Of a stretch of 64,000 nt of DNA, positions 25,911 through 51,751 are shown piece by piece. Source of the DNA: Periplaneta americana (Eukaryota > Arthropoda > Insecta > Blattodea > Blattidae); contig NC_091130.1 of NCBI RefSeq assembly GCF_040183065.1, forward strand, positions 127,201,914 through 127,265,913, written 5' to 3'. The position numbers and the translations under genes are program-made. The notes beneath the pieces are model-generated. The model had not been told where the DNA came from, did no database searches, and saw only the letters and a list, made by a program, of their open reading frames with translations. The number at the start of each line of letters is the position of its first letter. The first letter of the stretch is position 1.

Positions 25911-27164
25911 ATGAGAATGGAAACGAGATGGATGCTCTTCGTCGTCCTCATGCTCTTCCAATTAAGAAGAGTGACGTCGTGCCCCACCACGTGCAACTGT
26001 TACAGATGGAAAACCAACTGCAGAAATGCATCCCTGAATGCAGTGCCTTCCAACATCTCAGAGAGCGTAAGGATTTTCGACGTCGCTTCTAACAACATCT
26101 CCACATTACACAACAGAGACCTTATCAGCCTGAAGAACCTGGGAATAATATTCCTGGATAATAATGGTATAGTAAAACTAGAGCCGTACATTTTCAAGGA
26201 GACAAGTGAACTTCGTCACATATACCTGAACAACAACAAACTTATCAGTATTAATTTAAATGTGTTTCAGTTTACTAAAAAGTTGAGATATCTTTATTTA
26301 CAAAACAACGAAATTCGATATATCAGTCCTAACCTTTTCGCTCATAACAAAGATCTCGTAATGTTAGATATAAGTGGAAATCAAATTCAAAACTTCGAAC
26401 CGGACACTTTTCATAATAATCCTATTCTCTCTTGGGTACACGTTAAAAGCAACCCCCTCAAACTTCCGCTTGAGTGGCAAACACTGTTAAACAATTCCCT
26501 CAATGTTTTGGAAATGGATTTTTGTTCTGAACCTGGTCCAACTCTTAGTGCCATCTTGAACGTACCAAGCCTTAAGCATATACAGGCAATACAAAGATCA
26601 AATGTAAGTTTAGACGAATTTACATCTTATCAAACAGTTCACGGTCTGGATCATAACGAAATAGAGTACATAAAATACAAAATATTTCACGATTTGTACA
26701 GCATGAGTTACGGCATGACAAGTGTGCTCACAATTGGAGAAGAACGGAATGTTTTCACTTTGGAAGATGACTCTGTTTTGTGTTACTGTGGGCAGCATTC
26801 TGTGTGGTTTTGGTGTGACGAACAGCAAACAAATTGCGCGAAAACTGTTACAAAATCAGATAAATATAAGTTTTTATCATGCGACGCTCAACATGAGGAT
26901 GTGCTTTTGACATCACGAGACAACGAGGGAACTACAGATAGTGACAGAAGACGTAAGTCGTTGTGGTCAACGCTGAATCGCTCTGTAAGCGCGAAAACGA
27001 TCAGAAACACGCTGCTGTATGCTTCGATACCTGGGTGCATCATCATCATAGTGGCCAGCGCATCCGTAGTAAGATTCATAAAGCGTCGCAGAGCTAAAGA
27101 ACGAGAACGAATCAGAAATTCTCTTGTTTATTCCGAACTCTCAAGCATATCTCCAAACAGTTAG
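25911..27164 (+). CDS. Leucine-rich repeat type I membrane protein, 417 aa (LRR gene 1)
   Basis: Residues 1-22 are a signal peptide. C24, C28, C30 and C37 form an LRR N-terminal cap. Six leucine-rich repeats follow (about 53-185) with the LxxLxLxxNxI pattern, for example LRYLYLQNNEIRYISPNLF. There is no classical C-terminal cap. Instead C205 is followed by C291, C293, C302, C309 and C324 with CxCx3SxWFxCx6C spacing. A membrane helix covers about 368-390, followed by a 27-residue tail that starts with KRRRAKERER. Several N-x-S/T sites fit an extracellular domain. I chose ATG 25911, with ATG 25917 also possible. The coding part has no intron. Its paralogue is at 50168-51751. Location at the cell surface is inferred. 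The ligand and role are unknown. LRR receptors of this shape act in adhesion, axon guidance or recognition. The frame is intact amid decayed transposons, which argues that it is under selection. Confidence 0.9.
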   Translation: MRMETRWMLFVVLMLFQLRRVTSCPTTCNCYRWKTNCRNASLNAVPSNISESVRIFDVASNNISTLHNRDLISLKNLGIIFLDNNGIVKLEPYIFKETSELRHIYLNNNKLISINLNVFQFTKKLRYLYLQNNEIRYISPNLFAHNKDLVMLDISGNQIQNFEPDTFHNNPILSWVHVKSNPLKLPLEWQTLLNNSLNVLEMDFCSEPGPTLSAILNVPSLKHIQAIQRSNVSLDEFTSYQTVHGLDHNEIEYIKYKIFHDLYSMSYGMTSVLTIGEERNVFTLEDDSVLCYCGQHSVWFWCDEQQTNCAKTVTKSDKYKFLSCDAQHEDVLLTSRDNEGTTDSDRRRKSLWSTLNRSVSAKTIRNTLLYASIPGCIIIIVASASVVRFIKRRRAKERERIRNSLVYSELSSISPNS

Positions 27165-27384
27165 TTCCCACACAATTAAATAATACTTTCTGCCATATAT
27201 TTTTAACTTCAATGAATGAAGAACAATTAAATCCCATAATTTCTAAGGATAGTTTCAAACATTAATCTCTCTGTGAACGTATTATTACTAATACTGTGAT
27301 CGAAGACTGTTGAAGATGTATTATTAAATGGAAAATAACTGTCACAGCTTAGAAAATTAATTTTTCGAATGTCTAAAACTAACA
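27165..27384. other. Probable 3' UTR of LRR gene 1
   Basis: ATTAAA occurs at 27175-27180 and again near 27224 and 27321. None can be singled out as the polyadenylation signal. Confidence 0.35.
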
Positions 27385-27645
27385 AGGAGAGGACACGCTC
27401 TGTATATCACCGAATGGAATAAGATTGTGTGAGATGAAAGTACAAGACGTACTGTTTAAAGTCATACCTGGTATGGGTGGCCAATGACCCCTCGTTTTGA
27501 AAATATTGGCTATTGTTTGTGACATACTTCCGCTAGGTGCTTAATAGGGAAGCATTAGACTGTGTAACAGCATAGCCCATATGGTTGAATTCTGAGTTGT
27601 TATCCAGGCAACATAAGTTCGAATTTTAACTGGTCCTATTTTTTT
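27385..27645 (+). repeat. Composite repeat, right block only, copy 3
   Basis: It begins AGAGGACACGCTCTGTATAT and matches 28440-28705 and 11130-11395 in the opposite orientation. It ends with a tRNA-like section: CATAGCCCATATGGTTG (A-box-like) and AAGTTCGAATTT (B-box-like). It lacks the (ATT)n tract and the coding-like block. Confidence 0.75.
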
Positions 27646-28090
27646 TCTTTTAATAATGATTAATATTGCGATCACAGTAATCTATTCACATATCGACCTT
27701 CACAAGTACTAACATTGTAACTCACTTTCTTACATTTTCAGGAGATGAAAATTAAGTTTTAAAATGATCGTGTAAATTAGTGTATACACATATGTAGAGC
27801 AACAATAAGATTTTACATACAATTGGGGAGGTTTAGAGTTACAATGATAGTACTGGGAGAAAAACGAAACAATTTAAGACCATATTAACTAGGACAACTC
27901 AAAACCACAAATAATTGAGTTACAATGTTAGTACTTGGAAGAGTCGATATATCATATTTCTCAATGTATTGAACGCTTCATCATGTTTTAAACAAATTAT
28001 AATTAGCTAACATTGTATTGTAAAGGATAAGCAATGAAACATTGCTCATGTAGGCAGGTAAGATGTGTCACTGGTGTCTGTTCTGTTTCT
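27646..28090. other. Intergenic, nothing recognised
   Basis: No supported feature. Confidence 0.4.
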
Positions 28091-28097
28091 GTAGCAG

Positions 28098-28337
28098 CTA
28101 TTCCACTTCATTGTGTCCCGATTCGTTATGATAAATGTCATAAAAACACACAAAACATACATATTTCCTGCACCATGCACAGCAAATGAAAGAAGGTTGT
28201 CCACAGTCACACACATTTTTCCGCACTTCTACTGCGAAACAGATATCATTCACATTCACAAACACTTCTAATTCGTTTATTAATTTTGATGCATACCACG
28301 CATATTTCAACATGGCTTTGAATATAGGAACTGACAA
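28098..28337 (-). pseudogene. Possible piggyBac-type transposase C-terminus
   Basis: A 79-codon minus-strand frame ends FICCAWCRKYVCFVCFYDIY plus H. The CxxCx3-VCxxCFxxxYH arrangement resembles the cysteine-rich C-terminus of piggyBac-family transposases. Upstream residues (INELEVFVNVNDICFAVEVR) are repeated, with differences, at 10890-11040 (minus). No catalytic core is nearby. The family call is tentative. Confidence 0.35.
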
Positions 28338-28363
28338 CTGAAAGTGAATAAAGAAATTAAAAA

Positions 28364-28428
<65 letters not shown>

Positions 28429-28705
28429 GCTTTAAAAAATGAGAAGACGTTAGGATTCGAACTCAAGTTGCCTGGATGACAAATCAGTATCCAACCAGAT
28501 GGGCTAGGCCGTTACACAGTCTAATGCTTCCCTATTAGACACCTAACGGAAGTATGTCACAAACAATAGCCAATATTTTCAAAACGAGGGGTCATTGGCC
28601 ACCCATACCAGGTATGACTTTAAACAGTACGTCTTATACTTTCATGTCACAAAATCTTATTTAATTCTGTGATATACAGAGCGTGTCCTCTCCTTGTAAG
28701 TTATA
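28177..28705 (-). repeat. Composite repeat with tRNA-like boxes and (AAT)n, copy 2
   Basis: It has the same order as 10885-11395: coding-like block, (AAT)n (28366-28428), then a block with TAGCCCATCTGG and GAGTTCGAATCC on the minus strand and AGAGCGTGTCCTCTCCTTGT at the far end. Sharing of both blocks and the tract position shows that copies 1 and 2 moved or were copied as one unit. Confidence 0.78.
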
Positions 28706-29458
28706 GTTTATAAATGTAAGGCATCACAAATTCATTATCAACAATGATTGATTCTATTGTAGTAATTGATGTAGTAGATTGAGCCTGAGATCGATATGTT
28801 GTAGACAAAGCTAAATAATAATAAGCTTATGCTTGAAGAACCAAATTCATAAAGTATAAAGATAGATTAACAAGCAAAATGATCTAACGTGGTACGAATA
28901 GTACATACTACTTCAGGACAATTTGTCCACTCAAAAACTCCTATGTTTGCATTTGATCTATGCAAAATTGTCCAAGATATTTCGTTCTGTCAGGATCGTC
29001 CATAGAGTAACTTGAGCCTTACTGAATGATCCATAGTTTGTAAAAGTCTACGTGTAAGTTTTGTTCATAAATAGAGAAAGATTATAGTTTATTTAAAACT
29101 CTTGAGTATTTGGTACATATTTCATAAAAATAGACGTGTGTATTTGGTGCATAGTTTATTAAAAACCATGAGTATTTCGTGCATGACTTCAGATTTGTTC
29201 ATCTTCTTCCTTGTCTCTTATTTCGGCGGGATTAGTCTTCTTCAGTCGATAGAAATTATTTTCAGGAAATTTCGAGGACAAGCATGGTGAAAGATGGATT
29301 CAGTGTATCAGTTGTGATCAATGGTTTCATGGTCATATCAGTACCTTTCAAAACATAAAAAGAACTTTAATTACTTGGGTTGTATGTATAAATCTAACTA
29401 AGGAATTTTACTGAATATGCCTACATATTTTGAATTTAAGGACAATCACGAAAATATC
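28706..29458. other. Intergenic with a weak GTCCA-rich patch
   Basis: Between about 28915 and 29030, GGACAATTTGTCCAC, AATTGTCCAAG and GATCGTCCATAG recall the arms of the 15.5-17.2 kb repeat. Otherwise nothing is recognised. Confidence 0.35.
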
Positions 29459-29655
29459 TTTGTACCACAGTCTACTATATACAGTCACGAAGCTTGAGTT
29501 TTGAGGGTGCTATAAATAATAGACTGTGACGGTAATATTTTGCATTGCCTGTAATAAGGCGATATTAGCGATCCTAGTGGTGAGCAACTATCTAATGTTT
29601 GCATATTTACTACGTATTGAGCTTCGCGACTGTATATACTAGACTGTGCATGTAC
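29459..29655. mobile_element. MITE with 7-bp target duplications, copy 2
   Basis: The element is at 29466-29648, in opposite orientation to copy 1. The ends are CACAGTCTACTATATACAG and, inverted, CACAGTCTAGTATATACAG. The flanks TTTGTAC and CATGTAC agree at five of seven positions, consistent with an old insertion. Confidence 0.8.
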
Positions 29656-30344
29656 TATGACGAAATTACACCAACCCTTCTAGAGTGCTAAGTATTTTTA
29701 TTTATATATATATTGCTTGTTTGTAATTATTGTATAAATTTATTTGAGGTAAAAATGGTGACATGTAACTTCTCAAACCTAATAATTTATGTACATTAAA
29801 AACACATTTTTTTTAATTTGAACCATATTTTTTGCACCAAAACCTTAGTATCACGAAACTAGCCGAGTCTTCCCTAAAAAGAGTAAAAAATATATTGCTT
29901 ATGAGAGTGATGAAGTACCAAATAGTGTCTTCATGTACCAGCCGCAAGAAGAAATTATTTCAAAGTAATATAATAAATTTTGAAACAAAGTAGGCTGACT
30001 AAGTATATTGTAATAACCAAAATTAATCAACTGGTATTGATATGAAACAAGAATACCGAAATTTATTATAGAGTTTTATAAGCAGTTACAGGTACAAGCA
30101 TTTTCAATACCGGTGATTCCAAACCCTCCACAACCGTTGTTAACTCCAAAATCCTAAAGATTCATATTTCACCACAAAATAAACATTACATCGAATTCTT
30201 TTTATTACAAACATATATTCTAATCCCTAATCCTACTAACAATAAGAAATTAAAATGAAACACTAATAACATTTTTTTTTTTCTTTTCGACTTTTCTCTA
30301 ACAGTTACTTACCATTCAGATGTCGAGTTTTGAAGTTGTTCATA
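29656..30344. other. Intergenic, nothing recognised
   Basis: No supported feature. Confidence 0.4.
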
Positions 30345-30390
<46 letters not shown>

Positions 30391-30501
30391 TAATTGGTTT
30401 AATTTTACTGGGAGGGTTAAGGCCAAACGGCCTTCGCTTCCACTCAACCAGTATAAAAGTACATGGCAAATATAAATAACAGAAGTACAGAGAACAATTA
30501 A

Positions 30502-30550
<49 letters not shown>
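30345..30550 (-). mobile_element. Retroelement 3' end with AAGGCC hairpin and (ATT)n tail, copy 2
   Basis: On the minus strand CTGGTTGAGTGG and AAGGCCGTTTGGCCTTAA are followed by a long (ATT)n tail (30345-30390). A second (AAT)n run lies at 30504-30550. It is the same family as 5740-5900. Confidence 0.65.
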
Positions 30551-30551
<1 letters not shown>

Positions 30552-31624
30552 TCACAATGATAATAGCAGTAAGAGCAATAGAAGATAAGTTGAGTTTCAT
30601 GTTGTTCTAACTAGAATTAAACACTTATAATTTCGGAATACGTATTATATGTCTTTCTCGTGTTAAATTTTACCGTACCTGGTTACATGTTTCGGCCTGT
30701 TATTGGCTTCTTCAGAACTGGTTGTTGCTGGTCTTGGCGCCTTTTGTTTTGTTTCCTGTGGGGGTGTGTTTGTGTAGTGTAATGTGGAGTCAAAGAGTGT
30801 GTGTGTTCTGAAATTAAGTTGTGTGTTGAGAATTTCATTTGGATGTGTTTTTGTGTGTCTGTATATTTCGTATTGTTCTAGTGTGTTTAGTTTCTGGCTT
30901 TTTGGTTGGATGTGTAGAATTTCCATGTCTGTGTTTATGTCTCTGTGGGTATGGTTAGCATTTGTGATGTGTTCTGCATATGTGGAAGTGTTTTGTAATT
31001 TTGTTATGGCTGTGATGTGTTCTTTGTAACGTGTTTGAAATGAACTGCCTGTCTGTCCTATGTAGAAGTTGTTGCAGGTGTTACATTTGAGTTTGTATAC
31101 GTCTGTGTGGTTGTATTTGTTTGTTTGCGTGTTGAGATGTTTTTGTAAAGTATTATTTGTTCTGTATGCGATGTTGTAATTTAATTTCTTGAATGAGGTT
31201 GCAATCTTGTATGTGTTTTTGTTTTCGTATGTTAGTGTGATATATTTTTTTCTGTTCTTGTGTTTGTGTTGTATTCTTATGTTTTTGTGATTATGTTTTG
31301 TATTTCGAATTAATTTGTCTATTATGTTGGAGTTATATCCGTTTTCTTATGCTATGTATTTGATTGTGTCTAGCTCCTCTTTGTAATCTTGTTGGTTCAC
31401 TGATATGTTGAGTAGTCTGTGTACCATTGTTTGGAATGCAGCTTGTTTGTGTTGTGTTGGGTGGTTGGATGTGTTGTGTATGTGTGTTGTTGTTGTGGGT
31501 TTTCTGTAGACTTTGAATGTGTGTTTGTTGTCGACTTTTGTTATTGTAATGTCTAGAAAATTTATGGATTTGTTGTTTCTTTGTATAGTATTAGTATGTC
31601 ATCTACGTATCTGTGCCAATATAT

Positions 31625-31810
31625 GATGTTGTCTTTCATTCATTCATTTATTTTATTCCATAGATCTTACATGAGCAAAGAAGCTTTAAGATGTGGAACA
31701 AGTCAAAATTTTACAATATTACAATTACAATTTTTACAAATTTTTATACTTTTACAATTTAGTAATTTTCTACAATTTTTACAATTTTGTGCAATTTTTT
31801 ACAATATTTT
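31625..31810 (-). mobile_element. LINE 3' UTR inserted in the Penelope element
   Basis: The minus strand reads TTTTGACTTGTTCCACATCT, CATGTAAGATCTATGGAAT and AAAATAAATGAATGAATG. It resembles the 3' UTR at 14470-14545 (TTGACTTGTTCCATATTC) and ends in an ATGA repeat tail. The upstream part is a run of ACAATTTTT-type repeats. Confidence 0.55.
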
Positions 31811-32030
31811 GGCGAGATGTAGTGAGATGAGGTGAGGTCCGAGGATTCGCCAAAATATTACCAGGCATTTGCCTTTTGGTTTGGGGAAAACCTCGGAAAA
31901 ACCCAACCAGGTATTCAAATCAAAGGGGGGTAATCTAATCAAAGGAGTTGATGTCAAGGACTCGCCATAGACCATCTGGCTTCAGTCCCACGGCTGTGAA
32001 AATCCTCGGAAGAAACCAAAGACCAAAGGA
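31811..32030 (-). mobile_element. tRNA-derived SINE family A, broken body fragments
   Basis: GGCGAATCC, CCTGGTTGGG and TTTTTCCGAGGTTTTCCCC are recognisable on the minus strand. A second partial stretch lies near 31955-32010. The head is lost. It belongs to the insertion that separates the two Penelope parts. Confidence 0.55.
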
Positions 32031-32173
32031 TGTATGTATGTCTCTTCTATGTGGTGTATGAATATTTCTGCTAGTATGCTGGAAATGGGTGGTCCCATGG
32101 GTAGGCCTTCGGTTTGAGTGTAATTTGGTGTTAAGTAAGAAAATATGGATCAAAGGAACGATTGAACAAATAG

Positions 32174-32195
32174 AGTATTATTATTATTATTATTG

Positions 32196-32255
<60 letters not shown>
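32174..32255. repeat. (ATT)n microsatellite
   Basis: About 27 ATT units with one GTT interruption. Confidence 0.93.
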
Positions 32256-32849
32256 TCAGTGTTGAATAAATAAGTAATTTTTAACTTGTGAATCAGTAAT
32301 TAACAAACTCTATTTTAAAAATTATTCTGCCATTAATCAGAAGATGAACGTTTGGTTCGTAGATTGAGAATGTAGAAGTCGTCCGCTATCGTACCATATC
32401 TCATTTTACTTATCGACGTTTTATCTAAGCGGGTGAAGCAATGTTTGAAGCTATTGCTTGAAGAGGGTGATGAAACATGGAAATGGGTGGGACGATATAG
32501 TCGACCATGCTCCAGCAATGAGACGCTCGGGTGGTTCTCATTTGCCTTTACTTGCAGATGTGACTCAGTGAGCCATGGTGGACTAACCAGCGAGCAGCTG
32601 TTTACATGCTGGCTGCTAGGGACTCAAGAACCACATGTACTTCGGTTTCTCCTATCAGTTTATACACTGGTAGACATGCTAAGTGTTTGTGGTTACAAAC
32701 TATCTTGACTCTACCAACAGAATAAGCAGCAAATTTTCTTCAAATATCTCAGATTCACTAACCACGTGATATAGAGAATGCAAGTGAAATAATCCTGCAG
32801 ATTTTCAGAGAGAATAACTCATGTTATATTTAACGAAAAAGTTTAATAC
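32256..32849. other. Intergenic; a fragment of a MITE end near 32785
   Basis: CAAGTGAAATAATCCTGCAG at about 32784-32803 matches the end of the MITE at 33617-34354. Nothing else is recognised. Confidence 0.35.
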
Positions 32850-33505
32850 CATACTTACTTACTTAATGGCTTTTAAGGAACCCAAGGTTCATTACCGCCC
32901 TCACATAAGCCCGCCATTGGTCCCTATCCTGAGCAAGATTAATCCAATCTCTGCCACCATATTCCACCTCCCTCAAATCCATTTTAATATTATCCTCCCA
33001 TCTACGTCTCGGCCTCCCAAAGGTCTTTTTCCCTCCGGCCTCCCAACTAACATTCTATATGCATTTCTGGATTCGCCCATACGTGCTACATGCCCTGCCG
33101 ATCTCAAACGTCTGGATTTAATGTTCCTAATTATATCAGGTGAAGAATGCAATGCATGCAGTTCTGCGTTGCGTAACTTTCTCCATTCTCCTGTAACTTC
33201 ATCCCTCTTAGCCCCAAATATTTTCCTAAGCACCTTATTCTCAAACACCCTTAACCTATGTTCCTCTCTCAAAGTGAGAGCTCAAGTTTCACAACTATAA
33301 AGAATAACCGATAATATAACTGTTTTATAAATTCTAACTTTCAGATTTTTTGACAGCAGACTGGATGATAGAAAGCTTCTCAGGCATTTCCCTTATTTAT
33401 TCTGTGTTTAATTTCCTCCCGAGTATCTTTCATATCTGTTACTGTTGCACCAAGATATTTGAATTTTTCCACCTTTTCAAAGGATAAATTTCCAAATTTT
33501 ATATT
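32850..33505 (-). mobile_element. RTE-like LINE, 5'-truncated copy 3
   Basis: The minus strand reads [20 protein letters not shown], then [10 protein letters not shown], up to the TTCCTTAAAAGCC end and a short TAAG tail at about 32852. The upstream part (33300-33505) keeps LSFEKVEKFKYLGATV-like sequence with a deletion near 33380. Reading frames are broken. Confidence 0.85.
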
Positions 33506-33526
33506 TAATAAATTATGTATTTGTGT

Positions 33527-34450
33527 TATTATATTTTAAGTAATTTCTATATCCAGTAACGTGTTCATATTCTATGTATTTTATATACACATTGTGTTTT
33601 CTTGTTACTTTTACAAGGTGGAAGTGAAATAATCATGCAGACGTAAAGGGACGATAAATTCTACAGGCAAAATATGAATACGTTACTGGTTATAGAAATG
33701 GCTTGAAATGTAAGACAAATACTTGTATCAATAATGAACACACACAAAAATAATACACATGTAGAATATGAACACGTTACTGATTAAAGAAATTACTTGA
33801 AATATAATAAGACTGATACATGTATCAATAAATATAATAAATTTATTTAATTTTAATATAATACCATATTGGTCGAAAGTCCACAGTTTTCTCAGAAAAG
33901 AAAATGTTTCTTTCCCAAATGTTTAAAATCCTATTTATTCGTTAACTATTGCGAGTAGAATCATTATTCTTGTCCATATCGATAGAAAATCTAATAGAGA
34001 ATCATTTACCTCTCTGGCGTATTTCAATAACATGGACGGTTTTCATGTAAATTTAATTTAAAAACCATTAATTTGAAGTCACTGACCGATGCAACCAGCT
34101 TGCAAAAATGTAGCCAGAAAGGAAGATGGGAGGTAGTTCAATAATGCAGACAGACTTGAGTTCGTTGATCTTTTACATCAGTATTACGAGAAACAAGAGC
34201 AGTGTGTTAGCGGCGATGTTGCCAGACTGCTGAAACTTCCAACTCAATTTTGTAATTAACCGTGCATTTAGTCACAAAACGTAATATAGATTTTGTATTT
34301 ATTTTAAGTGTATCCTACTGTCCCTTTCGGTTTGCAGGATTATTTCACTTCCACCATGTATAAGTAACATGAAAACACAATGTGTATATAAAATACATTG
34401 TTAGAATATGAACACGTTACTGGATATAGAAATTACTTAAAATACAATAA
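33527..34450. mobile_element. MITE with GGTGGAAGTGAAATAAT ends and inverted flanks
   Basis: The element proper (33617-34354) has ends GGTGGAAGTGAAATAATC in inverted orientation. About 90 bp outside each end are also inverted copies of each other (33527-33616 and 34355-34447, sharing CCAGTAACGTGTTCATATTC). Further copies of the same 95-bp unit occur inside at 33668-33840. A relative is at 59057-59430. Confidence 0.65.
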
Positions 34451-34690
34451 CACAAATATATGTATCAATAATGAACACACAGAATACAATATGCAGGTAG
34501 AATATGAACAAGTTACTGGATGTAGAAATTGCTTAAAATATAATAGCACAAATAGATATATCAATAATGAACACACAGAATACAATGTACGGGTAGAATA
34601 TGAATAAGTTACTGGATGTAGAAATGACTAGAAATATAATAACACAAATACAAATATCAATAATGAACACACAATACAATATACAATATT
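34395..34690. repeat. Tandem array, three 95-bp units
   Basis: Each unit begins TAGAATATGAACACGTTACT or a close variant and ends AATAATGAACACACAGAATA. Two more degenerate units lie at 33668-33840 and an inverted one at 33527-33590. Confidence 0.85.
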
Positions 34691-39659: not shown

Positions 39660-40594
39660 TGATTTTCTTTGTAAACGATTGCTACCTCCTTGGAAAATTA
39701 TCGGACATAAAAAACTCATCTTACGTGCTTTATTTTTGGAAGTTCAAATAGCAGAATCAGCGCCAATCAATTACTGCTATTATACAATCCGCTAACTCTG
39801 AAACATTTCTTTTTAAATGTAGTATTCCAATTTTATACACTGACTGTGAGAAGATACAATAATTTTATTATATTTTAATATCCTCGCAAACAGTTGAAGT
39901 TACTGTGTAATAAAGACGAATGAATAAAAATGAATGAAATCGAAGTTTTACGTCTTACACATTGTTCTCAATATGGCTGAAATAAGAGTATTGGCATGTT
40001 ACAAGAAGTTCTCCACTTTTTCTCTAGCTGATAGTGTATACGTAGCCAAGATAAGAATGTTGTTATCTCTTTTTCAAACACGTCCAATTCGAAGCTCATC
40101 CCACAAATACTTGTAGCCTACTTCGCGATTGATGGATGAGGAAAAGCACTTCTCTAGCAACAAGTTGCTTCGTACATCAAATAACATTCGCTACAGTCGT
40201 TTCTCCTGGTTACAAGTTAACTAGAGTAAGTACAAACTTCAAACTTCTTCTGTATAAGCATTTGTTACTATTGAAATAGTTTTTAATATATTTAGTGATG
40301 TTTATAAGTAAGTGTTATTTGTAATTTATAAGAGACATTTAATATTATTTCTGTTTTGCTATAACTGAAAGTTTTGAGTCTCGTAATATGAAGAAGTGTA
40401 TAATGACTAACTACATACTGTAGTTCAATAAAATCGGATTATTTTATTACATTTCAAAGTTGCAAAATATCAACCACTGAGACAACAATTTGTTTTGTTT
40501 ATCTTGAACTACAATTTTGCATAAGGTTCGAAAATAGGGTTGCCAAGTTGAACTATCGCCAAACCCGGAGATTTACTGTCTATAAAATTAATTA
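39660..40594. other. Intergenic, nothing recognised
   Basis: No supported feature in about 0.9 kb. Confidence 0.4.
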
Positions 40595-40607
40595 TTATTA
40601 CTTGGGC

Positions 40608-40645
<38 letters not shown>
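40595..40645. repeat. (ATT)n microsatellite
   Basis: About fourteen ATT units directly before RTE copy 4. Confidence 0.9.
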
Positions 40646-41486
40646 GTTACATCAGCTTCTTGTCTATGCGGATGACGTGAATATGTTAGGAGAAAATACA
40701 CAAACGATTAGGGAAAACACGGAAATATTACTTGAAGCAAATAAAGCGATCGGTTTGGAAGTTAATCCCGAAAAGACAAAGTACATGATTATGTCTCGTG
40801 ACCAGAATATTGCACGAAATGGAAATATAAAAATTGGATATTTATCCTTCGAAGAGATGGAAAAATTCAAATATCTTGGAGCAACAGTAACAAATATAAA
40901 TGACACTCGGGAGGAAATTAAACACAGAATAAATATGGGAAATGCGTGTTATTATTCGGTTGAGAAGCTCTTATCATCCAGTCTGTTGTCAAAAAATCTG
41001 AAAGTTAGAATTTATAAAACAGTTATATTACCGGTTCTTCTGTATGGTTGTGAAACTTGGACTCTCACTTTGAGAAAGGAACATAGGTTAAGGGTGTTTG
41101 AGAATACGGTGCTTAGGAAAATATTTGGGGCTAAGCGGGATGAAGTTACAGGAGAATGGAGAAAGTTACACAACGCAGAACTGCATGCATTGTATTCTTC
41201 ACCTGATATAATTAGGAACATTAAATCCAGACGTTTGAGATGGGCAGAGCATGTAGCACGTATGGGCGAATCCAGAAATGCATATAGAATGTTAGTTGGG
41301 AGACCGGAGGGAAAAAGACCTTTAGGGAGGCCGAGACGTAGATGGGAGGATAATAAAATGGATTTGAGGGAGGTGGGATATGATGATAGAGACTGGATTA
41401 ATCTTGCACAGGATAGGGACCGATGGCGGGCTTATGTGAGGGCGGCAATGAACCTTCGGGTTCCTTAAAAGCCATTCGTAAGTAGG

Positions 41487-43036: not shown

Positions 43037-43099
<63 letters not shown>

Positions 43100-43155
43100 T
43101 TATTTTAGCTGGCAGAGTTAAGGCCGTAAGGCCTTCTCTTCCACTCAACCAGCAA
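43023..43155 (-). mobile_element. Retroelement 3' end with AAGGCC hairpin and (ATT)n tail, copy 3
   Basis: On the minus strand CTGGTTGAGTGG and AAGGCCTTACGGCCTTAA are followed by AAATAAA and about 25 ATT units. It is nested in the hAT element. Confidence 0.65.
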
Positions 43156-43549
43156 AAAGTATACAAACATATGTATGAACTTACAAAGAATTCAACAATT
43201 TGATTTAGATAAGAGTTTCATGTATACAAGAAAACACTCAACATTAAAAACATTAAAAATAAACCATGTATCCAGAGTAATAGTTACAATCAATAGAATT
43301 AAGATAAGAAGTCAAAAAAGCTTTCATTTCTTCAAGAGTCAATTTAACTGTATTAGATTGGGCCTAAAAATTTGTCTGGAAGCGATAAAAAGTAGGAAGC
43401 TGTGGAGGCTACTGGATTGTTACATCAGCTAGAAAAATTTGACATACTATTTTATCTGGTATGTTTAGACGGTATTCTTGCTCTTGCAAAGCCATTATCG
43501 GAAGCACTTCATTCTCCAAAAATGGATATTAGTAATATCCCTCATTAAG

Positions 43550-43725
43550 GCAACGATAGATAGTTTTTCAAAGCTCCGAAACGGAGAAAAATTCGAAGAA
43601 TTTCATTCCAATGCTGCATCCGCAGAAAGGACTTTTTCTGCTTTACGACGAATAAAAACTTACACCAGGATAACCGTGTCAAACACCACGCTGTATAATC
43701 TAGCAAGTTTATCCATCAAGAGGTA
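43550..43725 (+). pseudogene. hAT transposase C-terminal dimerisation segment
   Basis: The frame contains NAASAERTFSALRRIKTYTR and then NTTLYNLASLSIKR. (S)AER.FSALRRIKTY.R is the signature of the hAT dimerisation domain of the ZMYM1-like group. The DDE core is absent. It matches the CAGTGACGTAGCCAG ends, which are common in that group. Confidence 0.78.
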
Positions 43726-43995
43726 GAAAAGTTGGAATTTGTTGAAGGACTCATGATCAATGATCATCAGATTCGTTGCTAGGAAATCTCGACGGCCCCA
43801 GCTTCACCTTATGAAGAGTTTGTGTAGATATGCCTTGCATGATTGTTTATCATAATTTGACATGTTATTAAACAAGACTTCCGAGAATGAGTTTCAAGAG
43901 AGTTGACGGCAGCGGCGTTTTCAGGAGATGGGTCAGGTACTTTCTAAACCCTGCATACCCAAAATAATTAGTCTGGCTACATCACTGGTTGGCGT

Positions 43996-44170
43996 AGTGT
44001 GAGAGACTAGTGTCTGATTGGCGAAAAGAGAAGCGCGCTGAAACTTAAGCACTACCTCAGACGCTCATTTGTAAAGTTACATGCCTGACACAGATCTCAC
44101 AAAGTTAGGTGTAATCGTTGGACAGTGAATTTTCACTACAACCGTTACTGTTAATACAATAATACATTTT
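43996..44170. other. Spacer, nothing recognised
   Basis: No supported feature. Confidence 0.3.
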
Positions 44171-44300
44171 ACCGTAAGGTGAATGTCAGGTAATCTATGG
44201 CGAATCCTTGGTCTCATCTCACCAAATATCATCTCCCTATCACCAATTCCATCAACGCTAAATAACCTCGTAGTTGATACAGCATCGTTAAATAACGAAG
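44171..44300 (+). mobile_element. SINE family A, 3' half
   Basis: ACCGTAAGGTGAATGTCAGG to GATACAGCATCGTTAAATAA matches the 3' body of 3405-3665. The tRNA-like head is missing. Confidence 0.8.
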
Positions 44301-44347
44301 CAAAAAATTTGAGGCGGTAGCTGGAAAATGGGTCCATAGGTCTATAG

Positions 44348-44530
44348 CAGTGGTCGTCAGCATTCGCTGAAGTGTGCAAAGGGTACGCGGTGCTGTCCGA
44401 TGTGCACCATCGTGCAACAGGGAGAGATGGAGAGCACACCCGCTAGCAGCTATGGAGTGCACCCTAGTGCACTGCTTTTTCCGCGGGTAAGAAACTCTAG
44501 CCCCAGCGTGCTCTGTGCTGACGATCCCTG
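44348..44530. mobile_element. 183-bp hAT-type MITE, GC-rich
   Basis: The ends are CAGTGGTCGTCAGCATTC and, inverted, CAGGGATCGTCAGCAC. The perfect 8-bp duplication GTCTATAG lies at 44340-44347 and 44531-44538. No coding capacity. Confidence 0.85.
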
Positions 44531-44538
44531 GTCTATAG

Positions 44539-44887
44539 GCTCTTTTTCGGGAGAATGTTTAATTCGATTCTCCGTTTTAAAATACACTTGTTTACGTATC
44601 CTGTAAACAGAGGGCAGGGTAGCTAATTGAATGAATCCATGCACTCTTGTGTAGTTTTGGAACTCAGCAAACATCAGTGAAAATGATCCTCAAAGTAGAG
44701 TGTGAGTCCATCCAGGATTTGCACTAAAGTGTAAACTGCACTCTGAAGATAAACTTTGAAGTGAGTGTGAATCCATTCTAGATTAATACTAAACACGATC
44801 TGTATTCTGTACCCAATAGATATTCTTGATTTTTACGTTTTCTGTACAATTTATGACGTAACTATGAGATATATGTAAGAAATATAC
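44539..44887. other. Spacer, nothing recognised
   Basis: No supported feature. Confidence 0.35.
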
Positions 44888-45735
44888 TTATTTACTTACT
44901 TACTGGCTTTTAAGGAACCCGTAGGTTCATTGCCGCCCTCACATAAGCCCGCCATTGGTCCCTATCCTGAGCAAGATTAATCCAGTCTCTACCATCATAT
45001 CCTATTTCCCTCAAATCCATTTTAATATTATCTTCCCATCTACGTCTCGGCCTCCCCAAAGGTCTTTTTCCCTCCGGCCTCCCAACTAACACTCTATATG
45101 CATTTCTGGATTCGCCCATACGTGCTACATGTCCTGCCCATCTCAAACGTCTGGATTTTATGTTCCTAATTATGTCAGGTGAAGTATACAATGCGTGCAG
45201 CTCTGCGTTGTGTGACTTTCTCCATTCTCCTGTAACTTCATCCCTCTTAGCCCCAAATATTTTCCTAAGAACCTTATTCTCAAACACCCTTAATCTCTGT
45301 TCCTCTCTCAAAGTGAGAGAGTCCAAGTTTCACAACCATAAAGAACAACCGGTAATATAACTGTTTTATAAATTCTAACTTTCAGACTTTTTGACAGAAG
45401 ACTAGATGACAAAAGCTTCTCAACCGAATAATAACAGGCATTTCCCATATTTATTCTGCGTTTAATTTCCTCCCGAGTGTCATTTAGATTTGTTACTGTT
45501 GCTCCAAGATATTTGAATTTTTCCACCTCTTCGAAGGATAAATCTCCAATTTTTATAGTTCCATTTCGTACAATATTCTGGTCACGAGACATAATCATAT
45601 ACTTAGTCTTTTCGGGATTTACTTCCAACCCTATCGCTCTACTTGCTTCAAAAAGAATTTCCGCGTTTTCCCTAATTGTTTGTGGATTTTCTCCTAGCAT
45701 ATTCACGTCATCCGCATAGACAAGAAGCTGATATG
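44888..45735 (-). mobile_element. RTE-like LINE, 5'-truncated copy 5
   Basis: The minus strand starts at [20 protein letters not shown] (45733) and runs to AAMNLRVP and a TTAC-repeat tail at about 44890. A 2-bp insertion in the CTCTCT run near 45318 shifts the frame between two long open segments (153 and 138 codons). The 5' break lies within about 10 nt of that in copy 4. Confidence 0.87.
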
Positions 45736-46238
45736 TAAGAAATATAATTGTACTAAAATGATGTTCCATACTGATGTTTAGTTTAATGTTAACATATAAT
45801 CATATTGAAAGTATTTTGATAAAATAAACATGTTCTCTGGAAAAAGGCCTACAAAACGCTCTAATGAAATACATACATTTATAACACTATTAAAGTCGGA
45901 ATGCTTTATTTAAGAAAAAGCTATTATTATTTTGATAAAAGTGCATTCAAATCGCAATTAATAAAAATAAATCTTTCAATCTTTGACATGACTTTTGTTT
46001 ATGGGCCCTTTTTCTGGCTACCGCCTCAATTGTAAATCATTCCCTCTCCCAAATGTTGTATGAACTGTCTCTACTTATCGCTTGTGACAACCCTAACGGG
46101 AAATATATTTATGTGCCTAATGTTGACATTAAAATAATTTACAGTTAATATTAATTATTATATTAATATATTTAATGTAATTTATTACTTAAACTAAGAA
46201 AAGTATACAGTGAGAATTCCCTCTTCCTTTTGTTTAGT
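45736..46238. other. Intergenic, nothing recognised
   Basis: No supported feature. Confidence 0.4.
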
Positions 46239-46246
46239 ATACCTAC

Positions 46247-47158
46247 TAGAGATGAACAAAACTAACTGCCGCTCTCGCTCGCTGTGTTCGTTGCATTTGT
46301 CTTTCGAGTCTCGTCTCGTCATTCTCGTGCGCTTCTAGTCTCGCTCATCATTCTCGAAATAGCATTTGGTCGGGGAGGAAAGATTTCGTAACTTTGAATA
46401 ACATACATAATTGAAATAAATAACATTATAAATGTTTAACTGAGACAAACAGACAAAGCAGAACAGTACCGGTAACTTAGTTATCAAAATGTTCTGGTTC
46501 TATTATATGATATTACCTATGGTTATATAAATAGAAAAAAAAAACAATTCTCAAATAAATTTGCATTTCTAAGAAACATAAAGCATAACGTTAATATCTT
46601 TTTACTTGAGATTGTGCACTTGATCTCAAACATATGAAAAGAAAATTCCTAGGATGCTATGCATAGACATTTCGCTAACCCGCGCTACGAGCGTGCTAAA
46701 CTAGCCCCGGCTATCGACTGATTACTTGTACAGGATTCATATCATATCACATCGCTAACACTGGTTTATGAATACGGAAAACGTTAGTTCGCTCATCATC
46801 CACTGGAAGCCCGCGTTAAGAATATCTATGACTTTTAATAAGGATCTAGTAATTAAATAAATATTGGGGAACGGATTATTGTACACTGAAAGGTAGAGAT
46901 GATGTTTCAAATAGGCTACTTGATTGTATATACATGTATAACAGTTGCCAAAGTAAATAAAAGTTCAGTCGGGTATGAACAACTGTGGCGATTCAAGGCT
47001 GCTTGACGCTCAGGACTTCGGGAGTGATCAATCTCGGCGTCTCGAAACACTCACAAGCAGTCTTTACGTCAACGACGCGACGTATACAACATTGTCGTGC
47101 GGGTTTTCGGCTTTGCGGGCGCTGTTAGTCTTGCTTTCTCGATCGTTGTTCATCTCTA
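46247..47158. mobile_element. Non-autonomous hAT element with TAGAGATGAACAA ends
   Basis: The ends are TAGAGATGAACAAAAC and, inverted, TAGAGATGAACAACG. The perfect 8-bp duplication ATACCTAC is at 46239-46246 and 47159-47166. Both subterminal regions are GC-rich and full of CTCG/CGAG. No transposase was found. Confidence 0.82.
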
Positions 47159-47192
47159 ATACCTACATACTTCTGGCGACATTGGTGATCAG

Positions 47193-48953
47193 CAGGCTTC
47201 GAGACTTTAGACCCGATACAATAAGTTTACTGTGCATGCACTATAGGTTGTTGACTCGCTGCAGGTAGATAGAGATGTGTTGAGGTAACAACGTTGCTAT
47301 TTAGAGTAGAGTACGGTAGTATGGGGAAGCACACATATGTACATTCTGAAAGTAAATATACATGACACAATGATTGATAATGTCAAAAGAATGTGAAAAG
47401 TATTTATTCTTCTGTCTTTTATAAGCATTTGTGCTTAATTATACACAGTGTTAATGGTGGAAATAAGCATGTAGCAATTTTAATTTTTTCATTTATCCTA
47501 TTGGTCGTCTTTAGGAAGTGCAGTTACAGTACCGAATTGCAATGTACCTAGTACAAGATACATTCTCAGTGTCTCAAACGTAAATCTTTTTCGGTTATCT
47601 GCCAAAGTTTGTACTGCAGTTTGTACGTCGCATGATGTGATAGGAGCAAAACGAAAAAACCTAACATCATTGCAGTCTCTAAGAGACAGTCCTTTATTCT
47701 CAGGTGACTCTATGTCCACTAATTTGCTGTTTATGTTACACAGTGATCCATATCCGTTATTTTTACATAAAATTGATTTCCACTTCTGTTTTACACATTC
47801 AGTAACCGGTGTACTTGATGTCTAATTAATTCTCTGCATCATTTTCTAATTAATTTGAGCGCTTCCGACTGTAGATGTGAAATACCTGGGAATTATTGTT
47901 GATCAGCACTTGAAATGGGATAGACAAATCACCTTTTTATGTAACAGGATACGTAAAACAATTTAAAAATTTGTAAACCTTCGCCATTACTTGCCTACTC
48001 ATGTATTACGTTTGGTTTATTTGGCTATAGTTGAATCTGTTATCCAATATGGCATAACTGGATGGGGAGGCATTAAGAAAAACTGCTCTTTTTCCTCTAA
48101 TTATGTTGCAAAAACGTATCATCAAAATTTGTTTGAAAAGGGGACTGGATTATCCAACAAATTTGATCCATTCCGAATTGAATGTTTTTAGAATTGACCA
48201 AATTTATAAATACTTTTTAATGAAATTATATCATAAAAATAGAATGAAATTTGTAGCTCAGCCACATGCTCATAATACAAGACGAAATGAAATTCTTAAG
48301 TTAGTTGAACCTAAATATTTCACATCTGCTGCTTTACTACACAGTACAAATTATGGTCCACGTCTATATAATTCGATAATAAAATTTCATCCAGAATTGA
48401 CTACTTTAAACAATGAAATTTTCAGATCCAGAATTAAAAAAATTATATTACAGACTTCCCAGTATATATATTATGTACTACGTATTGCAAAACAAGTTTA
48501 TTTCTATCCCAAATATATTTTTTCTATCTTATCTTGGTTACTATATCAACATGACCTGTACTAATTATACTACTAATAATAATTTAATATTAATCCATCA
48601 ATCTCAACATCGTCTCCTTTTTCACTCAGTTATTACTAGTATTATTATTTATTAATTTTATCATCATCTTTATGTGAGCTTTTTTCTTAAGTATTTTGTC
48701 TACAAAGTATGTGTATCTATGTAACGGAACTGTCCCCGAACACGAGCTAGTTTCAGACGCAGTTTTAAAACAGGTTTGTATGAAAACCAAATTATTCGTC
48801 AGAACCTTCAAACCCAGAGCCTTTCCTTTGCGTATTTGTTGGCATCCATTCTACAGTACCCCAACCCACTGTACGCTTTACCACTATACTCAGTACGCCA
48901 TTATGCGGATTTCCCACTGAACTGTTCTATTGGGCCCGAAGTCTCGAAGCCTG
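47193..48953. mobile_element. Non-autonomous hAT element, 8-bp duplication GTGATCAG, with nested LINE
   Basis: The ends are CAGGCTTCGAGACTTTAG and, inverted, CAGGCTTCGAGACTTCGG. The duplication is at 47185-47192 and 48954-48961. It is only 26 bp from the preceding hAT element's duplication. A LINE fragment occupies 47865-48660. Confidence 0.85.
47865..48660 (+). pseudogene. LINE reverse transcriptase thumb and C-terminus
   Basis: Pieces in three frames read VKYLGIIVDQHLKWDRQI, HYLPTHVLRLVYLAIVESVI, QYGITGWGG, LQKRIIKICLKRGLDYPTN and KLVEPKYFTSAALLHSTNYG. They match the usual order of thumb and tail in Jockey/CR1-type LINEs. An early stop (RKTI-stop) and at least one frameshift inactivate it. 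It is homologous in the tail to 4625-4960 and 1310-1510. Confidence 0.78.
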
Positions 48954-48961
48954 GTGATCAG

Positions 48962-49224
48962 TAGACTTCTTGGAATTGCCACGAGAATCGCAAGGTTTAC
49001 TGCGCACGCGGTATAGACTGTATGAGAAAGGGGGCGTGCAAAGGATAGAGTATGCCTCTAATGTAAACACTGAGCAGTATACTGCGGTTACAATAAAACC
49101 TGTATCCTGCATTCAAGAAATATAATGAATGATCATTGAAGTAGGAAATGTCTAAACATGTAAATATACAATTATTTTACAGTGAGATATATTAACTCTT
49201 AAAATTTAATGTAAGATGCTCACA
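48962..49224. other. Spacer, nothing recognised
   Basis: No supported feature. Confidence 0.35.
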
Positions 49225-49840
49225 TCATCCTTGAATATGTGCATTGCGGTGAAGAGTTACGTACATTTTGAGCGACTGCAAAGTAACTTCCTCCGATGGT
49301 CACTTAAACAGTTTTTATTTTGTGAAAATGTACGTTCGACATCACACGATGTAATACGTACATATTTGAAGAACGGAAAGTCACTACTTTTAGTACACAA
49401 ACTTCAGATGTCTTGTCATGACCTGATAGTACATCATTTATAATACGAAGTTGTGAATAGGCAGAATTTTTAGCAATAATGTTTCTCAACTTACATTTCA
49501 CTTTTTCTGAGATTAGTGAATTGTTATTTTGGATAACGGTTTGTGTTACTTTATCCACTATATTAAGGACTTCTGAGAGTTGTAGTTTAGACGATTCTAA
49601 CAGGATGATGCTTTTGGACATGATTTTAAAATTAGAATCAATGAACAGAATATCTTCCAATAGCTGTTCAGAAGACAAGGATTTTACAGCTGCAACAGCG
49701 GAGCTGTCTGTCCTATCCAATGCATCAATTACCTCCATTATTTTGACGTAATGTTATTATTACCAGCATCCAACCACGTTCCCCAACGGGTCAAGACTGG
49801 CTGCGGGGGTAAGGGTATTCCAGGGGCGATTATTTGGAAC
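49225..49840 (-). pseudogene. hAT-like transposase remnant, C-terminal half
   Basis: Read on the minus strand from 49840, PVLTRWGTWLDA gives the TRWGTWL..A signature of a hAT transposase subgroup. A long open segment (49738-49304) follows with VIDALDRTDSSAVAAVKSLS, LLEDILFIDSNFKI and KCKLRNIIAKNSAYSQLRII. In that subgroup this part is the all-helical region before the C-terminus. The N-terminal half and the transposon ends were not found. The long uninterrupted segment suggests that it is relatively young, or only recently broken. Confidence 0.6.
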
Positions 49841-50140
49841 AGCAACAATCTCATGTTTGATTGAATTCTTGTCTGCACTGAACAAATGTTAAACTTTGAC
49901 TATTCCAACCACAGTGATGCAAAAACAAGTGCTTACATAGGTATACATTAGCTGTAGCTGCTCTATCTATTTGGACCGGACACAACTCTTAACATGAACT
50001 GCTTATACTACGAAACCGGGCGGTCGCTCACCTCTTCTATACTACATACATCGGCAACCTGATTGCATGCTGCGTGTGGCAATTCAACGAAGTCTAATGA
50101 TCAGTATCTGCAACGACTCGTGTATTTCTGCTGATTTATT
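49841..50140. other. Upstream of LRR gene 2, nothing recognised
   Basis: No clear promoter element could be picked out. Confidence 0.35.
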
Positions 50141-50153
50141 GAATTTGTTACAG
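50136..50153 (+). promoter_or_regulatory. 3' splice site upstream of LRR gene 2
   Basis: TTATTGAATTTGTTACAG ends at 50153, and the ATG follows at 50168. The arrangement is the same as in LRR gene 1, so a non-coding first exon is likely. Confidence 0.5.
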
Positions 50154-50167
50154 CTCAGAGGAGCGCT

Positions 50168-51751
50168 ATGACAGAGGGATTTCTCTGCCAAGTGGTTCTC
50201 TTTCTCAGCTTGCTGGCTTGTACAGTCGCTTCGTGTCCGGCGACTTGTGTGTGCGGTTCTCAACAGGTCAACTGCAACAATGCTACTCTCACGTCCGTGC
50301 CGAAGCTTAGGAAAGACACCGTCAGCATCGACCTGTCTTTCAACTGGATCAACACACTCCGCGACTCTGATTTCAGACACTTGCAGCGCGTCACACAACT
50401 CTTCGTCAATGACAATGGCCTGGTAGTGATAGAGGAGAATTCCTTAAGCCCGTTCAAAAGGTTGATGTGGTTATATTTGCATGACAACAACATTTCACAT
50501 TTAACTTGCAAGACTTTCAGATACCTAAAAGAACTAAGGTACTTATTCCTCCAAAACAACAAAATAGGTAGCTTGGACAATTGTCTATTCAGTCAAACGA
50601 AGAAGCTGACCAAACTCAACTTGAGTAGGAATCAAATTAAGATACTGGAGGCCACTATCTTTCGAAGCAATCCGCTTTTGCTTTTCTTTGACATTAAGAG
50701 TAACCCTTTGGAGACTAATTGGTTCGATCTTTTCAGGAAATCTTTCAATATGTCAGAAATTCCGTCTTGTGGAGAAAAACTCTCATTGTCTGAGGTATCT
50801 TCTAATAGAGGCGAAACTCCTAATAGTAAATACGTTGCAAATTCTGAAATACAGCAAATGATCGTCACAAATATTACTGCTTCTGTTTATGAAGCAAATG
50901 GTGTAACAAGGTACTTATTTCGTAAATTAGATAACATGAATCTTAATCACTACGATGTTTTTATAAAAACTGTAGCGTATGATGAATACAATACATTCAT
51001 AACCGGAAAGAACTTTAATATTACAATATTAACAGACTTTCCGATATTTTGTTTTTGCAAAAGTCTTTCTTTGTGGTTTATGTGTCAAGACTTGGAAGCA
51101 ATTTGCTCCAAATATATGTCAATGTTGGTTTTGACTTCATCCTTAAAATGCAATATTCTCTCAGGTAGAAGTGGAAAAGTATTGAATATACAAAATGAAG
51201 ATTACGATTATGACGTAGAAGAAGATTCCAAAGAAATTCGTGAAAATAACAGTGAAAACGATATGTTCACAGTGATGTGTGTAGCAGTGGTGTGTGTCAT
51301 AATCATCAGCATTGTGCTGATCATGGTTGTAGTGTACGTTAGGAAACAGAGGAACCCGCAGCACATATCTGAAAATCCAGTTCACTTCTTCGACCCAAAC
51401 AATTTGCATTTTAAGCCGAATAATAGCAATGAACTGCAGAACCAATGTCCTACGATTAACAAAACGCGTGATGAATTGCATTATCGACGCAAAAATGTAA
51501 TTGAACCTTCACATTCTAATACTAGCGCGCTGGAATCGACGGACAACGCTCTGGAGATAGATAATTTCTCTGATAACAGAGGAACATATCCGTCACTGAG
51601 GCAACATCAATCATTTACGTCAAATATCGAATCGACTGTGCCATCTATCGGGATCCCATCAGAAGTCGAGGCTGATAACCAAGCGATACATTTACGACAC
51701 GAAAATGATGGTACACATGCGCCGCTATTACACGGCCAACAAGAAAACTAA
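50168..51751 (+). CDS. Leucine-rich repeat type I membrane protein, 527 aa (LRR gene 2)
   Basis: The signal peptide ends near TVA-SC (residues 20-22). C23, C27, C29 and C36 form the N-terminal LRR cap with the same CxxxCxCx6C spacing as gene 1. Six repeats follow (about 52-190), for example LRYLFLQNNKIGSLDNCLF. C201, then C295, C297, C306, C313 and C328, form the same CxCx3SxWFxCx6Cx14C module as gene 1. An acidic stretch (EDYDYDVEEDSKE) precedes a membrane helix at about 366-389. The cytoplasmic tail is about 138 residues, rich in Asn and Ser with no known domain. It ends HAPLLHGQQEN. Many N-x-S/T sites are seen. There is one coding exon and ATG 50168 is the natural start. The gene is a paralogue of 25911-27164, and the long tail is its main difference, suggesting different intracellular partners (inference). 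The function is not known. Confidence 0.9.
   Translation: MTEGFLCQVVLFLSLLACTVASCPATCVCGSQQVNCNNATLTSVPKLRKDTVSIDLSFNWINTLRDSDFRHLQRVTQLFVNDNGLVVIEENSLSPFKRLMWLYLHDNNISHLTCKTFRYLKELRYLFLQNNKIGSLDNCLFSQTKKLTKLNLSRNQIKILEATIFRSNPLLLFFDIKSNPLETNWFDLFRKSFNMSEIPSCGEKLSLSEVSSNRGETPNSKYVANSEIQQMIVTNITASVYEANGVTRYLFRKLDNMNLNHYDVFIKTVAYDEYNTFITGKNFNITILTDFPIFCFCKSLSLWFMCQDLEAICSKYMSMLVLTSSLKCNILSGRSGKVLNIQNEDYDYDVEEDSKEIRENNSENDMFTVMCVAVVCVIIISIVLIMVVVYVRKQRNPQHISENPVHFFDPNNLHFKPNNSNELQNQCPTINKTRDELHYRRKNVIEPSHSNTSALESTDNALEIDNFSDNRGTYPSLRQHQSFTSNIESTVPSIGIPSEVEADNQAIHLRHENDGTHAPLLHGQQEN

What the first reader, a model, noticed from the sequence alone, without database searches (positions are those of the whole stretch)
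25911..51751. Paralogous intronless LRR receptors with a cysteine module of identical spacing
Both proteins share the N-terminal cap spacing, six repeats, and in place of an ordinary LRR C-terminal cap a module spaced CxCx3SxWFxCx6Cx14C with one further Cys about 90 residues upstream. Outside the cysteines and WF the module is very different between them, so the spacing is under constraint while the surface has diverged, as in recognition families. The cytoplasmic tails differ fivefold in length (27 and 138 residues). I do not recognise this module in a named LRR family.
Basis: partly seen in the sequence, partly recalled or inferred. Interest (0 to 1): 0.8.

Follow-up and report, generated by a model that had tools for sequence, protein, structure and literature searches.

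The report
Cockroach LRR receptors with LRRCT-like caps
Two neighbouring cockroach genes encode cell-surface leucine-rich-repeat proteins, and their puzzling cysteine module turns out to be a drifted version of the ordinary end cap of such proteins, so this is a divergent local gene family rather than a new kind of domain.

Summary
Window 25911-27164 (417 aa) and 50168-51751 (527 aa) are open single-pass LRR proteins; both carry CxCx3SxWFxCx6Cx14C exactly, with another Cys 86 and 94 residues upstream. The assembly (3.23 Gb, 91 contigs) fits Periplaneta americana. Three more intact paralogues lie nearby on the same chromosome (127.09-127.34 Mb), so the family has at least five genes.

A profile of the five caps aligns in register with 19 ordinary caps of the same genome; none of 150 cysteine-preserving shuffles reaches that score. 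The cap is not specially diverged: mean identity 39.7%, against 35.4% in the repeats and 19.8% in the linker.

Against: single-sequence tests are weak, P0002's fails, and Pfam's LRRCT model hits no module. Part of the linker has no assigned fold. Ligand, expression and orthologues are untested.

The parts
25911..27164 (+). Coding sequence of P0001 (417 aa), single open frame with stop
25878..25894 (+). Acceptor-like site, AG 16 bases before the ATG of P0001 (probable 5'-UTR intron)
   Evidence: sequence score only
25980..26048 (+). P0001 LRRNT region, residues 24-46 (CPxxCxC...C)
   Evidence: letters
26049..26462 (+). P0001 six consensus LRRs, residues 47-184
26463..26780 (+). P0001 linker, residues 185-290: first part resembles decayed LRRs, rest unassigned
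26523..26525 (+). P0001 upstream Cys205, at an LRR ladder position (LNVLEMDFC)
26781..26882 (+). P0001 LRRCT-derived cap, residues 291-324
27000..27080 (+). P0001 hydrophobic (transmembrane) segment, about residues 364-390
27081..27161 (+). P0001 cytoplasmic tail, about 27 residues, basic, with YSEL at 407-410
50168..51751 (+). Coding sequence of P0002 (527 aa), single open frame with stop
50137..50153 (+). Acceptor-like site, AG 14 bases before the ATG of P0002 (probable 5'-UTR intron)
   Evidence: sequence score only
50234..50302 (+). P0002 LRRNT region, residues 23-45
   Evidence: PF01462 below its cut-off, 17.8 against 25.8 bits
50303..50713 (+). P0002 LRRs, residues 46-182
50714..51049 (+). 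P0002 linker, residues 183-294
50768..50770 (+). P0002 upstream Cys201
51050..51151 (+). P0002 LRRCT-derived cap, residues 295-328 (most diverged of the five)
51260..51334 (+). P0002 hydrophobic (transmembrane) segment, about residues 365-389
51335..51748 (+). P0002 cytoplasmic tail, about 138 residues

Best explanation
These are two members of an old tandem cluster of single-pass (type I) LRR surface proteins in a cockroach. Each ectodomain is an LRR solenoid: an LRRNT cap, six consensus repeats, about two repeats that have drifted off consensus, a stretch of roughly 50-60 residues without assigned fold, and an LRRCT-derived disulphide cap (CxC, a Trp-rich segment ending in a Cys, two more Cys). 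Supported by sequence: homology of the cap to ordinary LRRCT caps, the upstream Cys falling on a ladder position, paralogy, and open frames under purifying selection. Inferred: the LRR face together with the variable linker binds an extracellular partner; the cap closes the solenoid next to the membrane, perhaps with one extra disulphide from the cap to the ladder Cys; and the very different tails couple the paralogues to different partners (P0004 has practically no tail; P0001 and P0003 share a basic tail with a YxxL motif). Which ligand, and whether the role is immune, neural or developmental, is not shown.
For: Profile of 5 caps against 19 ordinary caps of the genome: probability 92.2, score 33.4, in register; 0 of 150 cysteine-preserving column shuffles (best 21.7), 0 of 150 full shuffles (best 17.8), the family's own LRRNT 9.8; 34.2 with the cluster neighbour L039 left out. 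Linker plus cap of P0003 against the genome: an ordinary LRR gene with a canonical LRRCT, L056 at C14:135.130 Mb, E 2.0e-6, collinear through NNPIIL/NNPLIL, FC/YC and PVLCYCDSKAVWFWC/PLICDCHLKEVWLWC. A ladder-position Cys within 130 residues of the cap in 11 of 19 ordinary proteins. First 36 columns of the linker match pre-cap LRRs, 24.8, 0 of 100 shuffles (best 14.2). Intact frames and codon-position pattern. PMC2637281 (passages) gives the usual LRRCT start as NPWxCxCx3Wx3W with four Cys, Trp packing the cap.
Against: Single-sequence LRRCT profile: best stretch on the module in 4 of 5 proteins, but only P0004 is convincing (14.7 bits; 0 of 2,069 cysteine-preserving shuffle rows as high). P0005 7.1 (68 of 2,077), P0001 5.2 (104 of 2,057), P0003 4.6 (157 of 2,091), P0002 -2.5 at the module (2,057 of 2,100) with two repeat segments higher. 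With P0006 and L039 removed from the profile the counts are 2, 87, 215, 177 and 1,207. Pfam LRRCT hits none of the five modules. The linker-plus-cap profile finds no solved structure; best E 1, unrelated. The linker does not match interior LRRs (15.4, 1 of 100 shuffles as high), and strict ladder consensus at the upstream Cys is met by 3 of 5 (P0005 and P0002 each miss one position; by eye). The usual NP before CxC is not kept. No structure model could be made.
Confidence: 0.72

Rival explanations
1. The stretch between repeat 6 and the cap is an inserted island domain with its own fold and binding role, not decayed repeats, between the LRRs and an LRRCT cap.
For: The last 50-60 residues before the cap have no match to LRRs; the linker fails against interior LRRs (15.4, 1 of 100 shuffles as high). 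It shares a weak pattern of its own in P0003 and P0004 (GYxLxDYxxYNxTxxAVTT, by eye).
Against: Its first 36 columns match pre-cap LRRs (24.8, 0 of 100 shuffles), and P0003 aligns with an ordinary LRR gene across the whole linker with gaps.
Confidence: 0.3
2. The module is a new disulphide domain unrelated to LRRCT; the resemblance is convergent.
For: No Pfam LRRCT hit; weak single-sequence scores, P0002 none; no solved relative of the linker-plus-cap profile.
Against: 0 of 150 cysteine-preserving shuffles reach the profile score; collinear significant match to an ordinary LRR gene. Pfam also misses the cap of P0006, which sits in the ordinary place.
Confidence: 0.07
3. The segment right after repeat 6 (NPLKLPLEWQTLL...FCSEP in P0001) is the remnant of the original LRRCT that lost its CxC, so the upstream Cys is an old cap Cys and the module is a second cap.
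For: In the best PDB hit (LRRC15) one stretch carries P0001 97-211 over LRRC15's last repeats and what looks like its cap, ending near a Cys.
Against: P0003 and P0004 read as LRR with a ladder Cys here (FNVLDINFC, LDVIDVDFC), and L056 has a true repeat with Cys at the same place (SVESLDLGYC) before its only cap in the aligned region.
Confidence: 0.07
4. The genes are decaying, unexpressed copies.
For: No expression evidence was reachable; retroelement fragments and tandem arrays lie around them.
Against: Five frames of 360-553 codons open at 23-39% pairwise identity. In simulation at most 3 of 300 copies stay open after 10% neutral substitution and none after 20%. Second codon positions are the most conserved in all ten pairs.
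Confidence: 0.04

Closest known systems
LRRCT C-terminal cap (Pfam PF01463, SMART SM00082; CF1 class of Kajava and Kobe as cited in PMC2637281, passages)
   Same: CxC start, Trp-rich segment after it, further Cys closing the cap, position before the transmembrane segment; profile match to 19 caps of the same genome
   Different: Five Cys instead of four; no NP before CxC; separated from the last consensus repeat by about 80-110 residues; no Pfam LRRCT hit
Ordinary LRR gene of the same genome at C14:135.130 Mb (L056)
   Same: Collinear through the ladder Cys and into the cap (E 2.0e-6)
   Different: Open frame of 852 aa; canonical repeats up to the cap, NPLICDCHLKEVWLWC
Cluster neighbours P0006 (C14:126.840 Mb) and L039 (C14:127.184 Mb)
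   Same: Cx8Cx6C part of the cap spacing; acceptor-like site before the ATG
   Different: Cap directly after the last repeat; P0006 lacks the first Cys of CxC, L039 has CSDC
Solved LRR ectodomains (LRRC15, IGFALS, LRIG1)
   Same: Repeat region, and LRRNT in part
   Different: No stretch shown covers the module; one LRRC15 stretch runs to P0001 residue 211

Membership tests
LRRCT cap | CxC followed by two further Cys closing the cap | tested here: met
   All five have CxC...C...C plus one extra Cys after WFx
LRRCT cap | Trp-rich segment after CxC, residue match beyond the cysteines | tested here: met
   Profile score 33.4 against at most 21.7 in 150 cysteine-preserving shuffles; WF invariant in 5 of 5
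LRRCT cap | NP before CxC | tested here: not met
   DDSVLC, DFPIFC, NIPVLC, GMSVLC, DSLFLC. Hence filed as LRRCT-derived, not as a standard LRRCT
LRRCT cap | Match to Pfam PF01463 above its cut-off | tested here: not met
   No hit for the five modules; P0006's cap, in the ordinary place, is missed too, so the test is insensitive
LRRCT cap | Directly follows the last repeat | tested here: inconclusive
   80-94 residues between the ladder Cys and the cap, partly LRR-like
LRRCT cap | Two disulphides and a helix over the end of the LRR core | not tested
   Structure prediction never available (20 attempts)
Extracellular LRR transmembrane proteins | LRRs, single transmembrane segment, extracellular N-terminus | tested here: met
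   Pfam LRR_8 in 5 of 5; hydrophobic segment computed for P0001 and P0002, by eye for the other three; signal peptide judged by eye only
Toll-like receptors | Cytoplasmic TIR domain | tested here: not met
   No TIR in Pfam scans of the five
LRR-Ig receptors (kekkon, LRIG type; definition recalled) | Ig domain after the LRR cap | tested here: not met
   No Ig family in Pfam scans of the five

The most novel reading that the evidence does not exclude
The five-gene cluster is a lineage-specific receptor family in which the terminal repeats of an LRR solenoid have been remodelled into a fast-evolving ligand-binding island, held by an extra disulphide between a ladder Cys and a five-cysteine LRRCT, with different tails giving signalling and tail-less (decoy or GPI-like) versions.
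Probability: 0.2. Interest if true: 0.45.

Novelty: new variant of a known kind. Interest (0 to 1): 0.22.

Why it matters
It settles what the module most likely is, and shows that a cap missed by a database descriptor can still be recognised by comparison with the caps of its own genome. If the linker proves to be a binding island, the cluster would be a small, tractable insect receptor family with natural variants of ectodomain and tail.

Tried and rejected
Rejected or lowered: module as a new domain; pseudogenes; Toll or LRR-Ig membership. NCBIfam gave only hits far below cut-off, nearly all in the repeats. A search of the phage collection with P0002 gave no match. dN/dS was dropped because third positions are near saturation. 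A tree of 30 LRRNT-plus-repeat segments joins P0001-P0004 (95/91) but puts P0005 with P0006 on long branches (84/63), and 0% of 200 bootstrap trees make the five one group; P0005 is included because its linker and cap match (blastp E 1.1e-11 against P0001; E 3.9e-12). The linker-plus-cap profile found no solved relative. Tyrosine tail motifs (YSEL in P0001, YKDL in P0003) were only seen by regex or eye. P0007 (C9:61.695 Mb) has CxCx8Cx6C and a weak match (E 1.6e-4) and is left out of the family. The output was cut; I saw its head and tail. Papers: searches (listings), passages of PMC12774602 and PMC2637281; no paper on this cluster was seen, in an open-licence library only.
Full report
What was checked. 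Both ORFs exist as described. P0001 (window 25911-27164) and P0002 (50168-51751) share 30% identity over 326 residues (E 4e-40). The spacing CxCx3SxWFxCx6Cx14C is present exactly once in each, with the nearest Cys 86 and 94 residues upstream, one hydrophobic segment near residues 364-390, and tails of about 27 and 138 residues. At E up to 1, Pfam sees LRRs in both, an LRRNT below its cut-off in P0002, and a few sub-threshold hits, mostly on P0002's transmembrane stretch.

Where it is. The window is C14:127201914-127265913 of a genome of 3,231,669,367 bases in 91 contigs. The published P. americana assembly PAMFEO1_priV1 has 3.23 Gb and 91 scaffolds (PMC12774602, passages), so the species is inferred. 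The paper says that chromosome 10 and part of 14, missing from the other P. americana annotations, include leucine-rich repeat proteins; whether these genes are meant is not known.

The family is larger. Whole-genome searches with P0002 (90 matches) and P0004 (132 matches) give the same five cluster genes: P0003 at C14:127.093 Mb (minus), P0004 at 127.113 (minus), P0001 at 127.228 (plus), P0002 at 127.252 (plus) and P0005 at 127.335 (plus). Two LRR genes with caps in the ordinary place lie among or near them: L039 at 127.184 Mb and P0006 at 126.840 Mb. The tool scores only its best candidates, so counts are lower bounds. Across the five, CxCx5WFxCx6C is invariant, the last gap is 14 in four and 11 in P0004, and the S is not fixed. 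An acceptor-like site lies 7-16 bases before the ATG in all five, and also before P0006 and L039, but not P0007; 18.2% of 2,481 background ATGs score as high. So the genes are probably not retrocopies, although relatives are not independent trials.

What the module is. Ordinary LRR proteins of this genome end in caps such as NPLECDCQLQPLWYW and NPLHCDCQMLKLWKWC. The modules fall on this in register: DDSVLCYCGQHSVWFW on GNPLECDCQLQPLWYW. Profile-profile comparison of the five (25 residues before the cap to its last Cys) with 19 ordinary caps gives probability 92.2, score 33.4, over 28 columns covering CxC to the fourth Cys; interior LRR segments as template give 15.5. With cysteine columns fixed the best of 150 column shuffles scores 21.7; with all columns shuffled, 17.8; the family's own LRRNT 9.8; without L039 in the template 34.2. 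So residues other than cysteine carry the match.

Results against. A single-sequence LRRCT profile has its best stretch on the module in 4 of 5 proteins, with low scores: P0004 14.7 (0 of 2,069 cysteine-preserving shuffle rows as high), P0005 7.1 (68 of 2,077), P0001 5.2 (104 of 2,057), P0003 4.6 (157 of 2,091). In P0002 the module scores -2.5 (2,057 of 2,100 as high) and two repeat segments score higher. With P0006 and L039 out of the profile, P0004 has 2 shuffle rows as high, P0005 87, P0001 215, P0003 177, P0002 1,207. Pfam's LRRCT model hits none of the five modules, nor the caps of P0006 and P0007. The linker-plus-cap profile has no credible solved relative.

The clinching comparison. Residues 165-329 of P0003 (linker plus cap) searched against the genome give 27 matches at E up to 10: itself, P0004 (5.0e-23), P0001 (2.7e-13), P0005 (3.9e-12), then the ordinary LRR gene at C14:135.130 Mb (L056, 2.0e-6); P0002 appears at 1.46. 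Of the 22 non-family matches 13 end at query 136-141, just behind WFWC (132-135), 12 of them in frames over 500 aa; apart from L056 none is significant alone. Aligned with L056, NNPIIL falls on NNPLIL, the FC of the upstream Cys on the YC of a ladder repeat, and PVLCYCDSKAVWFWC on PLICDCHLKEVWLWC. A ladder-position Cys within 130 residues of the cap is found in 11 of 19 ordinary proteins, six at 52 residues and one each at 75, 79, 90, 93 and 102; in the family the distance is 80-94. Strict ladder consensus at the family's Cys is met in P0001, P0003 and P0004; P0005 and P0002 each miss one position (by eye).

The linker. From 20 residues before the ladder Cys to 7 before the cap, its first part (36 columns) matches pre-cap LRRs (24.8; 100 shuffles reach at most 14.2), but it does not match interior LRRs (15.4; 1 of 100 shuffles as high). 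Roughly 50-60 residues before the cap stay unassigned. I read it as about two decayed repeats plus a short insert; an inserted island is a live rival.

Divergence. Mean identity over ten pairs: LRRNT 45.7, repeats 35.4, linker 19.8, cap 39.7 (28.8 without shared cysteines), juxtamembrane 15.3; for P0001-P0002 alone cap 29.4, repeats 33.8. The module is about as conserved as the repeats. Third codon positions differ at 0.61-0.69 and second positions least, 0.34-0.51: the frames are under purifying selection, and dN/dS between paralogues is not usable.

Function. That type I LRR surface proteins usually bind protein partners is general knowledge. Tails range from almost none (P0004), through a basic tail with YxxL in P0001 and P0003, to about 138 residues (P0002) and a longer one (P0005) (tails of P0003-P0005 by eye). 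Different couplings are suggested, not tested.

Noticed in passing
L011 (P0004), residues about 335-360: P0004 ends within or just after its hydrophobic segment (..FFIIVLHHN stop), so it has no real cytoplasmic tail and might be tail-less or GPI-anchored.
   Followed up: no
window 23871-25673: A 19-base tandem array (about 96 copies, 76% matches) lies just upstream of P0001, within 250 bases of its ATG.
   Followed up: no
window 15586-16668 and 52071-52419: A 107-base tandem array (10 copies) and a 76-base array (4.6 copies) that begins about 320 bases after the stop of P0002.
   Followed up: no
window 1790-2644, 40548-41468, 45308-45769: Three reverse-transcriptase fragments (Pfam RVT_1) of similar sequence; like stretches also appear in L041 and L043.
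   Followed up: no
C9:61.694-61.697 Mb (L016, P0007): A single-frame LRR protein whose cap also reads CxCx8Cx6C; it matches P0001's linker plus cap weakly (E 1.6e-4 among the fetched ORFs) and may be an outlying relative.
   Followed up: partly
C11:164.04-164.30 Mb: Many LRR matches in frames mostly of about 680-740 aa in one stretch, apparently another tandem LRR array of this genome.
   Followed up: no
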